The position numbers and the translations under genes are program-made. From positions 1 through 64,000 of the forward strand of contig JAISVB010000056.1 of NCBI GenBank assembly GCA_031271755.1: 64,000 nt of DNA, written 5' to 3'. The notes beneath the pieces are model-generated. The model had not been told where the DNA came from, did no database searches, and saw only the letters and a program-made list of their open reading frames with translations. This DNA is from Culturomica sp. GTDB lineage: Bacteria > Bacteroidota > Bacteroidia > Bacteroidales > Marinifilaceae. Below are positions 11,276 to 15,827 of this stretch, piece after piece. The first letter of the stretch is position 1. The number at the start of each line of letters is the position of its first letter.

Positions 11276-13159
11276 ATGGCCTCTTTGCTTCCTGATTATG
11301 ATGTGATCGTTGTAGGAGCCGGCCACGCCGGTTGCGAAGCGGCTGTGGCGGCAGCCCGCCTTGGTTCGCGGACATTGCTTATCACGCTGGATATGAATAA
11401 GATAGCGCAAATGTCCTGCAATCCGGCCATTGGAGGAATTGCAAAGGGTCAGATTGTCAGAGAGATAGATGCGCTGGGAGGGATGACGGGAGTGGTAACG
11501 GACGCCGCTTCGATCCAGTTCAGAATGTTGAACCGCTCCAAAGGGCCTGCCATGTGGAGCCCTCGTTCCCAGTCTGACCGGATGAAATTTTCGGAGAAGT
11601 GGCGGCGTATTTTGGAGCATACCCCGAATTTGGATCTTTGGCAGGACGATGTAACGGCTGTTTCGGTGAACGGTCGGGAAGTTTCCGGGGTACAGACTGC
11701 TTGGGGTGTTTCGTTCAATGCCCGGAAAGTGATCCTGACCACCGGGACTTTTCTGAATGGTCTGATGCACATCGGCAAGACCAATTTTGCCGGGGGAAGG
11801 ATCGGGGAGCCGGCCTCTTCCGGATTGACCGCCTCTCTCCGCGGGTTGGGATTCGAATCCGGGCGTATGAAAACCGGTACGCCTGTCCGGGTGGACGCCC
11901 GGAGCATTGATTTTTCCGCATTGGCCCGGCAGGACGGAGACAACGATTTCCACCGCTTCTCTTTTCTGAATGCCGGCAAAAGAAACGATCTGCCTCAATT
12001 GCCCTGTTACATTGCGTATACCAATGCGGAGGTACACCGGGCGCTGACGGAGGGGTTCTCAGACAGTCCCCTGTTCAATGGAACCATACAGAGTGTGGGG
12101 CCGCGCTATTGCCCCAGCATCGAAACCAAATTGTCGACCTTTCCGGATCGGGACAGCCACCACCTCTTTTTGGAACCGGAGGGTGTCGATACAACGGAAT
12201 ATTACCTGAACGGCTTCTCTTCTTCCCTTCCCTGGGATGTGCAGTTGAAGGGGTTGCGTTTGGTGAAAGGCTTTGAAAACATCCGGATATACCGTCCGGG
12301 ATACGCCATAGAGTACGATTATTTTCCTCCTTCCCAGCTTTTCCATACCTTGGAGAGCAAACGGATTAAAGGGCTTTATCTGGCCGGACAGATCAACGGT
12401 ACGACCGGTTACGAAGAAGCGGCTGCTCAAGGATTGATGGCTGGTATCAATGCACACCTCTCCCTGCACGGCTGCGAAAGTTTTATCCTGAAACGCGACC
12501 AGGCATACATCGGAGTGCTGATCGACGACTTGGTGACCAAAGAGGTGGATGAACCTTACCGGATGTTTACCTCCCGGGCGGAGTATCGTGTTTTGTTACG
12601 TCAGGATAACGCGGATACCCGTTTGACTCCTTTGGGATATGACTTGGGATTGGTGGACAATGGTAGACATTGTTTATATTTAGATAAGATGGAGAAGAGG
12701 GATGTGTTGATCCGTTTTATCCGGGATTTGAGTGTCCGGCCGGACGAAATGAACGATCGATTGACGGCTTTGGGCTCAACGCCCTTAGTTCAGCGCGTGA
12801 AGTTGGTGGACGTACTCGGAAGGCCGCAGGTAACTATTGAGAACATTCTTTCAACGCTACCGGAACTCTCTTCTTTTATCCAAGAACAGGAGATGAATGA
12901 GGAGGTGGTAGAGGCTGCTGAAATCCTGATCAAGTATTCGGGTTACATTGAACGGGAGCGCGTTATTGCAGATAAGATTTCCCGTTTGGATGATCTGGTT
13001 ATTGAGGGTAAATTTAATTATGAGGAGATCAACAGTCTTTCCATTGAAGCAAGACAAAAGCTCTCCAAGGTACAACCGCAAACGATCGGGCAGGCTTCAC
13101 GCATTAGCGGTGTTTCTCCGGCGGATATAAGTGTGTTGCTTATTTTACTGGGGAGATAG
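11276..13159 (+). CDS. mnmG: tRNA uridine-5-carboxymethylaminomethyl modification enzyme, FAD-binding subunit
   Basis: With MnmE this enzyme installs the cmnm5 group on the wobble uridine of several tRNAs, using FAD. At 627 residues it is full length. The FAD dinucleotide-binding motif [10 protein letters not shown] is at 15-24, the conserved [12 protein letters not shown] stretch follows at about 46-57, and the GIDA-associated C-terminal helical domain ([10 protein letters not shown] and the end [14 protein letters not shown]) is intact. It starts one base after the ybeY stop, which closes the plus-strand operon. Downstream lie two parS sites; mnmG commonly lies near the replication origin in many bacteria. 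Confidence 0.98.
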
Positions 13160-13184
13160 GGTTGGTCGGTTTAGGAATGAGGAG

Positions 13185-13200
13185 TGTTTCACGTGGAACA
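13185..13200. promoter_or_regulatory. parS centromere site 1 (one mismatch)
   Basis: TGTTTCACGTGGAACA differs at one base from the perfect palindromic ParB-binding consensus TGTTTCACGTGAAACA. It is embedded in a roughly 48-base segment that recurs exactly 200 bases downstream. ParB loads here and spreads along the chromosome to drive segregation. Confidence 0.88.
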
Positions 13201-13384
13201 TTCGCACTTTTTTGAAAGAACCGGCCATATCGTGACGGTGTAGCACGTCCGGATGTGTTGTTTGGAGAGTGGTGTCGGTTTTTCTTTGTGGTGTATGGGA
13301 CGCTTCGATTATTGTCTTTGTTCGTGGCTTGTCTTTGCACAACGATTTCCTGTTGTTTTTCGTTCGTCGAATCTGAATGAGAAA

Positions 13385-13400
13385 TGTTTCACGTGAAACA
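13385..13400. promoter_or_regulatory. parS centromere site 2 (perfect consensus)
   Basis: TGTTTCACGTGAAACA is a perfect 16-base palindrome identical to the bacterial parS consensus. Flanks shared with site 1 (GAATGAG before, TTCGCACT after) show that the two arose by duplication. parA and parB are not in this window. Confidence 0.93.
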
Positions 13401-13459
13401 TTCGCACTGTTTTGGGAGAAGCGATAGTGGAGGGCAATGTCCGAAAGGTTGTTGTTTGG

Positions 13460-13750
13460 GTGGAGGTGGGAGTGAGTTTTTCGGAACTTCCGGACGCTCC
13501 GGTGTATTGTCCTTCGGGAACCATGTCTCCACAACGGTTCTCTAATTTTTTCCCGTTCGCTGGAATCCTAACCGCCTTCTTCCCTTCGGTCAGTCGGCGC
13601 CCCTGCGGGGAACTCGGATTCCGGGCACTCCGGAAAGAAAGGAAAACGATCGTTGTTCCCGACAACCGTTCTGAAGGATCAATACACCTGCGCTCTGCAG
13701 AGGTGATTGTAAAGTTGAGCTATAAAAAAGAGTTTCGCTTTTGTATTTTG
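13460..13750. repeat. Tandem intergenic repeat, copy 1
   Basis: A 291-base unit beginning GTGGAGGTGGGAGTGAG. From about 13500 to 13690 it forms a long imperfect palindrome: outer arms CGGTGTATTGTCCTTCGGGA and its complement-like GAAGGATCAATACACCTGCG, inner arms, and an apical hairpin CCCCTGCGGGG. Copy 2 follows directly with scattered substitutions. The element resembles a structured intergenic repeat; I cannot tell whether it is transcribed. Confidence 0.85.
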
Positions 13751-14024
13751 GTGGAGGTAGGAGTGAGTTTTTCTGGACTTCCGGACGCTCCGGTGTATTG
13801 TCCTTCGGGAACCCTGTCTCCGCAACGGTTCTCTAATTTCTTTCCGTTCGCTGGAATCCTAACCGCCTTCTTCCCTCCGGTCAGTCGGCGCTCCTGCGGG
13901 GAGCTCGGATTCCGGACGCTCCGGACAGAAAAGAGAACGATCGTTGCTCCCAACAACCGTTCCGAAGGATCAATACACCTGCGCTCTGCAGAGGTGATTG
14001 CAACGTTTCGCTTTTGTGTTTGAT
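13751..14024. repeat. Tandem intergenic repeat, copy 2
   Basis: Aligns to copy 1 at an offset of 291 bases, lacking about 17 bases near its right end. The outer arms are 13791-13833 and 13933-13981, and the apical stem is GCTCC-TGCGG-GGAGC near 13889-13904. Many differences from copy 1 fall in the loops or swap one pair for another, which would fit selection for the fold; this impression is by eye. Confidence 0.85.
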
Positions 14025-14146
14025 CGGAGTCGTATTGTTTTCAGGTATGCGGGAAGCGGAGGACTCGCTTTCGGAAACAACAGGCCGGAGCTGTAGTGAA
14101 AAAGAGAAAGAATTTATATGTTTATCTTAGAGGTAACGGTAGATCC

Positions 14147-14178
14147 CTTGCAACACTACATCTTTCTGTGTATTTTTG
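14147..14178 (+). promoter_or_regulatory. Promoter of adenine deaminase
   Basis: The -33 box CTTG (14147-14150) and -7 box TATTTTTG (14171-14178) are 20 bases apart, the ideal Bacteroidota spacing. The start codon is 36 bases beyond the -7 box. Confidence 0.7.
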
Positions 14179-14213
14179 CCGTAAATAAGAAGTGCTATAT
14201 ATTGCTATAAATT

Positions 14214-15827
14214 ATGCAGAGCATAAAAGGTAACATTGTTGACATTGTTGCCCGGAAGGTCTATCCGGGGGAGGTGTTTATTTCGGATACAGGATGTATT
14301 GAAAGAATAGAGCCCGTTTCGGAAGTTTGTTCGCTCTATCTCTGTCCCGGTTTTGTGGATGCTCACGTACACATCGAGAGCTCCATGCTGATGCCTCGGG
14401 AGTTTGCCCGCATGGTGGTGAAGAGGGGAACATTGGCAGTGATGAACGATCCGCACGAAATAGCTAATGTGCTGGGGGTGCCCGGAGTGGAGATGATGGT
14501 TGCGGATGCCCGGGAATCGGTTATTAAAATTTATACGGGCATTCCCTCCTGTGTTCCGGCAACCCCGTTGGATTCTTCCGGAGCGGAGATCAATGCCCGG
14601 AATGTCGAGGCAATGGCCGGTAGTGGAGAGTACGCTTTTTTATCGGAGATGATGAATGTTCCCGGAGTCTTGTCCGCAGATCCGGTTGTCATGGATAAAT
14701 TATCTGCAGCCAAGAAATACGGTTTGCCGGTAGACGGCCATGCTCCGGGTTTAAAGGGGGAAGATTTGAAAAAATATGTGGCGGCAGGAATCTCTACTGA
14801 TCACGAGTGCGTGACCTTGGAAGAGGCCGAATGCAAAATAAAGAACGGCATGAAAATCCTGATCCGGGAAGGAAGCGCAGCCCGGAACTTTGATGCTCTG
14901 CATCCGCTTATTGGGAAATATCCCGATGCTGTTCTGTTTTGTACGGACGACTCCCATCCCGATGATGTGATGGAAAACGGCCACATTGACAAATTGGTGA
15001 AAAGAGCCTTGGCATTGGGGTATGACCTGTTCGACGTATTACAGGTAGCGACCCGGAATGCAGTACAACACTACCGGGTTGATCTCGGTATGTTGCAGGT
15101 GGGAGATGCAGCCGATTTCATCGTAGTGGACAATTTGACCGATTTCTCTGTGAAGGAAGCCTGTGTCAATGGCCAAAATGTGCTGCACAGGCCGGTCGTT
15201 TGGAAAAATACAGCCCTCCGGATGAATAATTTCTGTCACAAAAAGATCAAAATCAGCGATTTATCTCGAAAATTTTCCGGTAAAATAACCGTAATTTCGG
15301 TTCAAGATGCTGAAATTCTCACCGGAAAATCTGTTTACAGCGGTACGCCCGCCGAAAATCTGGAATCGGATCTTGAAAAAGATCTATTGAAATTAGTCTA
15401 CCTGAACCGTTACCACAACGGAAGCCCGCAAATTGCCTATATATCGGGGATCGGAATAAAAACAGGCGCTTTTGCCTCTTCGATCTCCCACGATTCTCAC
15501 AATATTCTGGCCATTGGAACCAACGATGCGGATTTAGCGGATGCCATCAATGCCGTTATTGAAGCAAAAGGCGGTATCTTTGTCAAAAATGAGAGCGGTC
15601 TGTCGGGTTTACCCCTGCCGGTCGGAGGAATTGTCACCGATTTACCGGCCGATTTCGTGGCAAAAGAGTACGCAGCCCTGAACAGAAAGATCCACAGCAT
15701 GGGCGCTTCGTTACATGCCCCTCTGATGACCCTCTCCTTTATGGCTTTGCTGGTGATCCCGCAAATAAAGATCGGAGAGAGGGGTTTGTTTGATTATTCG
15801 ATTTTTGATTTTCTGAGAAATACCTGA
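14214..15827 (+). CDS. ade: Adenine deaminase
   Basis: Converts adenine to hypoxanthine and ammonia in purine salvage. The 537-residue product belongs to the amidohydrolase superfamily: metal-binding GFVDAHVHIESSM (about 46-58), NDPHEIANVLG (about 84-94), GHAPGL, STDHEC and the late CTDDSHPDD with the catalytic Asp are all present, followed by the C-terminal domain typical of Ade-type enzymes (GLPLPVGGIVTD). It has its own promoter and is followed after 11 bases by uvrC, so the two may be co-transcribed. Confidence 0.96.
   Translation: MQSIKGNIVDIVARKVYPGEVFISDTGCIERIEPVSEVCSLYLCPGFVDAHVHIESSMLMPREFARMVVKRGTLAVMNDPHEIANVLGVPGVEMMVADARESVIKIYTGIPSCVPATPLDSSGAEINARNVEAMAGSGEYAFLSEMMNVPGVLSADPVVMDKLSAAKKYGLPVDGHAPGLKGEDLKKYVAAGISTDHECVTLEEAECKIKNGMKILIREGSAARNFDALHPLIGKYPDAVLFCTDDSHPDDVMENGHIDKLVKRALALGYDLFDVLQVATRNAVQHYRVDLGMLQVGDAADFIVVDNLTDFSVKEACVNGQNVLHRPVVWKNTALRMNNFCHKKIKISDLSRKFSGKITVISVQDAEILTGKSVYSGTPAENLESDLEKDLLKLVYLNRYHNGSPQIAYISGIGIKTGAFASSISHDSHNILAIGTNDADLADAINAVIEAKGGIFVKNESGLSGLPLPVGGIVTDLPADFVAKEYAALNRKIHSMGASLHAPLMTLSFMALLVIPQIKIGERGLFDYSIFDFLRNT

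What the first reader, a model, noticed from the sequence alone, without database searches (positions are those of the whole stretch)
13460..14024. Tandem long palindromic elements next to parS
Two neighbouring roughly 290-base copies each fold into a hairpin of about 190 bases with paired outer arms, paired inner arms and a G/C-rich apical stem. Changes between copies often look compensatory. They could be a structured non-coding RNA, a REP-like or MITE-like repeat, or a DNA structure used at the centromere.
Basis: partly seen in the sequence, partly recalled or inferred. Interest (0 to 1): 0.6.

Follow-up and report, generated by a model that had tools for sequence, protein, structure and literature searches.

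The report
Hairpin-carrying mini-transposon, tandemly duplicated inside
The two hairpins are the inside of a small "passenger" jumping element, found dozens of times in this gut bacterium and its closest sequenced relative, whose ends match those of a known transposon family and whose hairpins kept their base pairing in copies that spread but lose it in copies that merely sit in the genome.

Summary
The two copies are real: 267 nt, 91% identical, 291 bp apart, folding better than all of 200 shuffles. They are not a parS feature. They are the interior of a longer non-autonomous transposon (about 13430-14130, degenerate ends) belonging to a dispersed family in the window's genome (29 covariance-model matches) and its one held congener (17). 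Complete members have 22-bp terminal inverted repeats, CAGGGCAAACGCAYGAAAATTT. One member has an exact empty site in the congener with a 10-bp target duplication. The first 17 bases of the repeats equal those of an ISAs1-family insertion sequence in the same bacterial family; no ISAs1-type or Y1 transposase was found in the genus. So this is a MITE, and the window's double unit is a local duplication inside it. Covariation is very strong across the family (226 double-changed cells against 74 in shuffles) but weak between the window's own two copies (one compensatory pair, five broken). Mapped on a tree, double changes lie mainly on internal branches and broken pairs on tips. G-U pairs are not favoured over A-C. 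I infer a DNA palindrome kept in propagating lineages, by selection on mobility and/or template switching, rather than an RNA gene. New member of a known kind.

The parts
13430..13457 (+). Degenerate left end (L-end) of the element; consensus CAGGGCAAACGCACGAAAATTTGTTGTTT
   Evidence: Local alignment over 13431-13457, score 15, reached by 6 of 2000 dinucleotide shuffles of 13160-13493; consensus ends
13455..13721 (+). First 267-nt unit of the tandem pair (linker + hairpin A copy 1 + right linker)
   Evidence: the repeat finder D1
13494..13695 (+). Hairpin A, copy 1 (partly decayed: five pairs broken relative to copy 2)
   Evidence: CM match 13524-13664, 156.3 bits; difference list
13746..14012 (+). 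Second 267-nt unit of the tandem pair; shares a private linker with the first unit, so a local tandem duplication
   Evidence: linkers 13455-13493 and 13746-13784 match each other over 35 nt at 91%, and match no other held locus over more than 12 nt
13785..13986 (+). Hairpin A, copy 2 (outer stem GGTGTATTGTCCTTCGGG.., middle stem CAACGGTTCTCT.., apical stem CGCTGGAATCC../..GGATTCCGG)
   Evidence: RNA fold z -4.48 of 13746-14012; CM match 13815-13955, 163.7 bits
14062..14114 (+). Remnant of the right arm (base of hairpin B plus inner part of the R-end)
   Evidence: 81% match on the minus strand to L044 758-810, E 5.9e-5
14099..14130 (+). Degenerate right end (R-end); consensus AAAAAGAGAAAAAATTCGTGCGTTTGCCCTG
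   Evidence: Local alignment over 14099-14123, score 15, reached by 3 of 2000 shuffles; extension to about 14130 read by eye
13185..13200 (+). parS-like site, neighbour of the element, not part of it
   Evidence: 0 mismatches
13385..13400 (+). Second parS-like site, neighbour of the element, not part of it
   Evidence: 0 mismatches on both strands

Best explanation
The feature is the interior of a non-autonomous DNA transposon (MITE) of ISAs1 type, inserted between mnmG and ade. SHOWN: the family is dispersed in two genomes of one genus; complete members carry 22-bp terminal inverted repeats with distinguishable left and right ends; one member has an exact empty site and a 10-bp target duplication; the repeat tips equal those of an ISAs1 insertion sequence in a related genus. 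SHOWN for the interior: long imperfect hairpins (A, and an inverted paralogue B in several members) whose pairing covaries. INFERRED: an ISAs1-family transposase acting in trans moved the elements when one was present; in the two genus genomes held none was found, so the family now looks immobile and decaying. The window's element then duplicated its hairpin-A unit locally, and its ends decayed. INFERRED, less sure: the hairpins were kept paired as DNA palindromes (cruciform or single-strand hairpin) in lineages that went on copying, through selection on mobility and/or template-switch repair between the arms, and lose pairing once a copy is resident. No role for parS and no host function at this locus is needed. 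The confidence given is for the MITE identity; for the DNA-palindrome part alone I would say about 0.55.
For: Copies: 39 BLAST matches, partial ones included, in the own genome; covariance model 29 in G000 and 17 in G001. Terminal repeat pattern with up to 3 mismatches: 28 hits in G000 and 6 in G001, reversed-pattern control 0 in both. Elements with both ends: L017 480 bp, L021 428, L025 370, L032 321, L039 291, L044 560, L060 460, L086 173. Empty site: L025 flanks 1-978 and 1351-2399 lie side by side in G001:C1, duplication GTGAAAGCGT/GGGAAAGCAT. ISAs1: L089 ORF 1486-2592 hits NF033564 with 380 bits; its IS ends start CAGGGCAAACGCATGAA on both sides. G071 IS: ends CAGGGCAACCGCACCAAAATTT, one copy with perfect 9-bp duplication CTTTATAAC, NF033564 318 bits. 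Covariation: 17 A copies, 45 double-changed cells against 16.4+-3.0; 46 A+B copies, 226 against 73.9+-6.7, slid controls 24-49. Tree mapping of 40 rows: double changes 29.6 internal / 12.4 tip, A-C and G-T breaks 6 internal / 34 tip; the direction holds with site-by-site reconstruction, while slid partners give about 1 double change and roughly even tip/internal breaks.
Against: Target duplications are clear in only one of eight two-ended elements (L025), plausible by eye in L086, weak in L017 and not visible in L021, L032, L039, L044 and L060 (flanks). The second empty site (L044 in G000) is not exact: 66 bp of other sequence lies between the flanks. No transposase with these ends was found inside the genus, so mobilisation in trans is inferred from other genera; G000 is a draft of 75 contigs. 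L060 has the ends but no hairpin A, so the hairpin is not needed for every insertion. The tip/internal contrast rests on parsimony and one approximate tree; with a tree from unpaired columns only, double changes under site-by-site reconstruction split evenly (16.0 internal / 16.2 tip), though breaks stay tip-heavy. The A-C excess over G-T (27 against 12, p 0.024) could also hint at a minus-strand RNA.
Confidence: 0.87

Rival explanations
1. A structured non-coding RNA: the hairpin is transcribed and the pairing is selected in RNA.
For: Strong covariation; invariant apical stem containing a conserved T-G position (UG in 42 of 45 scored rows); MITE transcripts forming stem-loops are described in the review PMC10969869 (passages).
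Against: No Rfam match up to E 1. In 59 strand-neutral pairs G-T cells (9) do not exceed A-C cells (15); tree-mapped G-T 12 against A-C 27. Pairing is lost on tips, so resident copies are not protected. 29 loci show no single gene orientation: 15 co-directional, 6 divergent, 5 convergent, 3 undetermined (crude ORF picking). No transcript data were available.
Confidence: 0.1
2. Pairing is maintained only mutationally: template switching between the two arms during replication rewrites one arm from the other, with no selection. (Not exclusive with the best explanation, which it would complete.)
For: 42 double Watson-Crick changes, 18.8 of them transversion-type, which a G-U intermediate cannot explain; double changes are present on short branches. 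Template-switch maintenance of stems is proposed in PMC8794818 (abstract; passages).
Against: The double changes on a branch do not form clear adjacent runs. If correction ran at the same rate in resident copies, breaks should not be tip-heavy. Conserved asymmetric bulges persist on the 3' arm (alignment).
Confidence: 0.35
3. REP/REPIN-type palindromes moved by a RAYT (Y1) transposase.
For: Dispersed intergenic palindromes with compensatory changes, as reported for REPINs (PMC3116915, passages).
Against: No Y1_Tnp (PF01797) match in either of 2 genus genomes; 22-bp terminal repeats and a target duplication fit a DDE element.
Confidence: 0.02
4. A centromere element working with parS.
For: Two parS-like sites lie about 30 and 230 bp to the left of the element.
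Against: Of 130 loci held, parS-like sites occur only in the window's own loci and the ortholog L055. In L055 the parS-like site is kept while hairpin A is absent from the same intergenic region. Many copies lie elsewhere.
Confidence: 0.02
5. Only a local duplication without wider meaning.
For: The two units share a linker found nowhere else among held loci, so the doubling itself is local.
Against: Many related copies elsewhere in G000 and G001.
Confidence: 0.01

Closest known systems
ISAs1-family insertion sequences (NCBIfam NF033564; Pfam PF13808 + PF01609)
   Same: Terminal repeats: first 17 bases CAGGGCAAACGCATGAA identical to L089 on both ends; 9-bp duplication in G071 against 10 bp for L025
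   Different: The window's family has no transposase gene, is 173-560 bp between ends instead of about 1.27-1.40 kb, and carries hairpins; only the ends were seen to match
MITEs of Bacteroidota: BrickBuilt, MITE239, MITE464/MITEPgRS and MITE700 of Porphyromonas gingivalis (PMC4596501, passages)
   Same: Short, intergenic, multi-copy, terminal repeats shared with an insertion sequence; target duplications often missing or uneven; some members here also carry a minisatellite (L039, L066)
   Different: Those MITEs share ends with IS5-family elements, not ISAs1; BrickBuilt's interior is a 23-nt tandem repeat, here it is covarying hairpins
REPINs (PMC3116915, passages)
   Same: Dispersed palindromes with compensatory changes on both sides of the hairpin
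   Different: No Y1/RAYT transposase in the genus genomes; far longer hairpins with 22-bp terminal repeats outside them
Long palindromic enterobacterial repeats such as ERIC/IRU (recalled; no call)
   Same: Long imperfect palindrome in intergenic regions
   Different: Not compared by sequence here; restricted to other bacteria as far as I recall

Membership tests
MITE (non-autonomous DNA transposon) | Short (50-1000 bp) and without a transposase gene | tested here: met
   Eight two-ended elements, 173-560 bp, with no transposase ORF recognised in or around the ends inspected; the window element spans about 700 bp
MITE (non-autonomous DNA transposon) | Terminal inverted repeats | tested here: met
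   22-bp repeats; 28 and 6 genome hits against 0 control; the window's own ends are degenerate
MITE (non-autonomous DNA transposon) | Multi-copy and dispersed | tested here: met
   29 + 17 covariance-model matches on many contigs
MITE (non-autonomous DNA transposon) | Target site duplication and empty allele | tested here: met
   Exact for L025; inexact for L044; no visible duplication in five of eight two-ended elements
MITE (non-autonomous DNA transposon) | Ends shared with an autonomous transposon | tested here: met
   ISAs1 IS L089 in the same bacterial family; none inside the genus
ISAs1-derived element | Mobilised by an ISAs1 transposase | not testable with these tools
   Needs an in vivo or in vitro transposition assay
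REPIN/REP | RAYT (Y1) transposase in the genome | tested here: not met
   PF01797: 0 of 2 genomes, control finds it in 5 of 14 named genomes
Structured ncRNA family | Match to a known RNA family | tested here: not met
   No Rfam match up to E 1
Structured ncRNA family | Strand-specific tolerance of G-U pairs | tested here: not met
   G-T 9 against A-C 15; 12 against 27 tree-mapped
Structured ncRNA family | Transcript | not testable with these tools
   No RNA-seq available
Centromere (parS) element | Copies associated with parS | tested here: not met
   Only the window and its ortholog among 130 loci

The most novel reading that the evidence does not exclude
The nested A/B hairpins are a DNA-structure signal under selection at the level of the transposon itself: copies whose arms pair are the ones that go on multiplying (for example because a cruciform helps excision, synapsis or replication-coupled copying by a borrowed ISAs1 transposase), while resident copies decay freely. 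The family would be a natural record of selection on a DNA hairpin in a selfish element, with A-B-type inverted hairpin pairs as its full-length form.
Probability: 0.25. Interest if true: 0.6.

Novelty: new member of a known kind. Interest (0 to 1): 0.36.

Why it matters
It turns an odd structure beside parS into a well-bounded MITE family with a matching transposase family and an insertion shown by comparison of two species. If the tip-against-ancestor contrast in base pairing holds with more genomes, it offers a rare way to separate selection on a DNA hairpin from selection on an RNA hairpin, and from pure template-switch correction.

Tried and rejected
Rfam at gathering threshold over the whole window gave one tRNA only, and nothing up to E 1 over 13160-14213 or over L044, L025, L116, L027. 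Hairpin core against 72,556 plasmids: no match. Exact 23-base core pattern in viral contigs: 0. Covariance model over 247 genomes drawn from the order: only G000 matched (strict filters; G001 was presumably not in that draw, since it matches). BLAST of the unit in 39 genomes (own plus relatives): only G000 and G001. Search for a transposase between or beside the ends within about 1 kb: none recognised by eye in the ORF lists. ISAs1-associated domain in the genus: 0 of 2; in the family 7 of 56, of which 6 over the cut-off. Y1 transposase 0 of 2. Gene-orientation bias: none clear (ORF-based and crude). Consensus promoter and terminator scan of 13160-14213: 2 promoter-like sites (0.8 expected) and 6 terminator-like sites (2.1 expected), the latter mostly the hairpin itself; not used. 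Literature: no paper holds both 'ISAs1' and 'Odoribacter'; 'MITE'+'Odoribacter' returned 55 papers, the 20 listed being about other matters judging by titles; 'ISAs1'+'MITE'+'terminal inverted repeat' returned 8, seen as listing only. Absence from print is claimed only for these searches.

Rows dropped: six of 46 rows (L023, L026, L033:1020, L032, L034:1099, L048) were left out of the tree work as incomplete, poorly aligned or rearranged; pair 41/284 was left out of the strand-neutral set because it is mostly T-G.

Full report
OBSERVATION. Two direct copies of 267 nt (13455-13721, 13746-14012; 91% identical; start-to-start 291) lie between an mnmG gene (11276-13159) and an ade gene (14214-15827). 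The second copy folds at -110.6 kcal/mol, z -4.48, with 0 of 200 shuffles as good. Two parS-like sites sit to the left at 13185 and 13385. Between the window's two copies, 15 alignment columns differ: one compensatory pair (two columns), five broken pairs, three G-T pairs, five unpaired positions.

A DISPERSED FAMILY. BLAST of the region finds 39 matches, partial ones included, in the own genome (2.36 Mb, 75 contigs), and among 39 genomes (own plus relatives) only the own genome and one congener G001. A covariance model of 17 hairpin copies finds 29 matches in G000 and 17 in G001 and, in 247 genomes drawn from the order, matches in G000 alone.

THE REAL BOUNDARIES. Reading the flanks of the copies showed that hairpins are enclosed by CAGGGCAAACGCAYGAAAATTT repeats in inverted orientation. 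A pattern search gives 28 hits in G000 and 6 in G001, with 0 for the reversed pattern in both. Left ends run on as ..GTTGTTTT and right ends as ..TCTCTTTT. Eight elements have both ends: 480, 428, 370, 321, 291, 560, 460 and 173 bp. Degenerate versions of both ends flank the window's pair at 13431-13457 and 14099-14123 (6 and 3 of 2000 shuffles score as high), and 14062-14114 independently matches the right arm of a G001 element (E 5.9e-5). The linkers preceding the two window units match each other over 35 nt at 91% and no other held locus beyond 12 nt, so the window's doubling is a local tandem duplication inside one element.

MOBILITY AND TRANSPOSASE FAMILY. The 370-bp element at L025 is absent from G001, where its two flanks are contiguous; the duplicated target is GTGAAAGCGT (left) and GGGAAAGCAT (right). 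A G001 element (L044) is likewise absent at the matching place in G000, though 66 bp of other sequence lies there. In family genomes, the end sequence and the ISAs1-associated domain led to insertion sequences of about 1.40 kb in G071 (ends CAGGGCAACCGCACCAAAATTT; one copy with a perfect 9-bp duplication) and of about 1.27 kb in G069 whose two ends both start CAGGGCAAACGCATGAA. Both encode ISAs1-family transposases (NF033564, 318 and 380 bits). The ISAs1-associated domain is absent from both genus genomes (0 of 2) and present in 7 of 56 family genomes. The simplest reading is a MITE family once moved in trans by an ISAs1 transposase. Target duplications are missing or unclear in most two-ended copies, as would be expected of old insertions, but this is also the weakest part of the mobility case.

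ORTHOLOGOUS SITE. In the UBA944 contig the same intergenic region is about 270 bp long, keeps one parS-like site, and holds what looks by eye like a remnant of an element's right arm without hairpin A. The site may therefore have held an element before the two species split.

HAIRPINS. Hairpin A covaries strongly: in 17 copies, 13 pairs with double changes and 45 double-changed cells against 16.4+-3.0 in shuffles. The model also recovers hairpin B, an inverted paralogue that in three G001 elements lies head-to-head with A about 147 bp away (C44, C22, C28). Over 46 A and B copies there are 226 double-changed cells against 73.9+-6.7 in shuffles and 24-49 in slid controls. That alignment is fitted to the model's structure, which leans towards pairing; an RNAalifold consensus made afresh on it keeps only 16 pairs, 10 of them with double changes. 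The apical stem (CGCTGGAATCC / GGATTCCGG) is nearly invariant, and apical arms differ between members.

DNA OR RNA? In 59 pairs predicted on both strands, G-T cells number 9 and A-C cells 15. Mapped on a tree of 40 copies, there are 42 double Watson-Crick changes (23.2 transition-type, 18.8 transversion-type), 12 changes to G-T and 27 to A-C. RNA selection on the plus strand would favour G-T; it does not. The A-C excess (p 0.024) could mean minus-strand RNA, but the conserved T-G position (42 of 45 scored rows) would be an A-C mismatch there. Double changes lie mostly on internal branches (29.6 against 12.4 on tips) while A-C and G-T breaks lie mostly on tips (34 against 6), with tip and internal branch lengths of 1.80 and 1.32. 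Site-by-site reconstruction without pair-based tie-breaking keeps the contrast (double 16.6 internal / 7.7 tip; all breaks 9.2 / 43.3), and slid partners do not show it; with a tree from unpaired columns the breaks remain tip-heavy but double changes split evenly. I read this as pairing kept in lineages that propagate and lost in resident copies: a property of the element's own life cycle, not of host function at each place. Template switching between arms, proposed for RNA stems in PMC8794818 (abstract and passages), can produce such double changes in one step and may be part or all of the cause.

COMPARISON. It works and looks like a MITE and meets the tested MITE criteria. Porphyromonas gingivalis MITEs share ends with IS5-family elements (PMC4596501, passages); here the match is to ISAs1. 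REPINs show compensatory hairpin changes (PMC3116915, passages), but no Y1 transposase was found in either genus genome. Copies elsewhere show no parS-like site in the flanks held.

VERDICT. An ordinary kind of object, newly bounded, with an unusually well-kept nested hairpin whose maintenance is the main open question of interest.

Noticed in passing
window 13185-13200 and 13385-13400: Two parS-like sites 200 bp apart downstream of mnmG; the related UBA944 contig (L055, 3717-3730) holds one at the same place.
   Followed up: partly
L060 1185-1644 (G000:C62): A 460-bp element with good ends of the same type but an unrelated interior without hairpin A; the ends may mobilise other cargo.
   Followed up: no
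L066 about 100-300 and L039 220-510: Members whose interior holds a GGGTGTAGATC-like minisatellite, reminiscent of the minisatellite-bearing BrickBuilt MITE.
   Followed up: no
L027 1356-1557, L028 1133-1332, L030 1108-1307, L034 665-881: Hairpin variants with about 60 extra nt in the apical arm, found in both A- and B-type hairpins, as if apical arms were swapped between types.
   Followed up: partly
L083 1650 and L084 1898 (G071:C1): Two ISAs1 copies whose outer flanks share AAGCCGCTC, consistent with recombination between inverted copies.
   Followed up: no
L085 1552 and L094 1514 (G004:C42): An end-like sequence overlapping a short ISAs1-associated domain match beside a tandem-repeat stretch; possibly a decayed ISAs1 element.
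   Followed up: no
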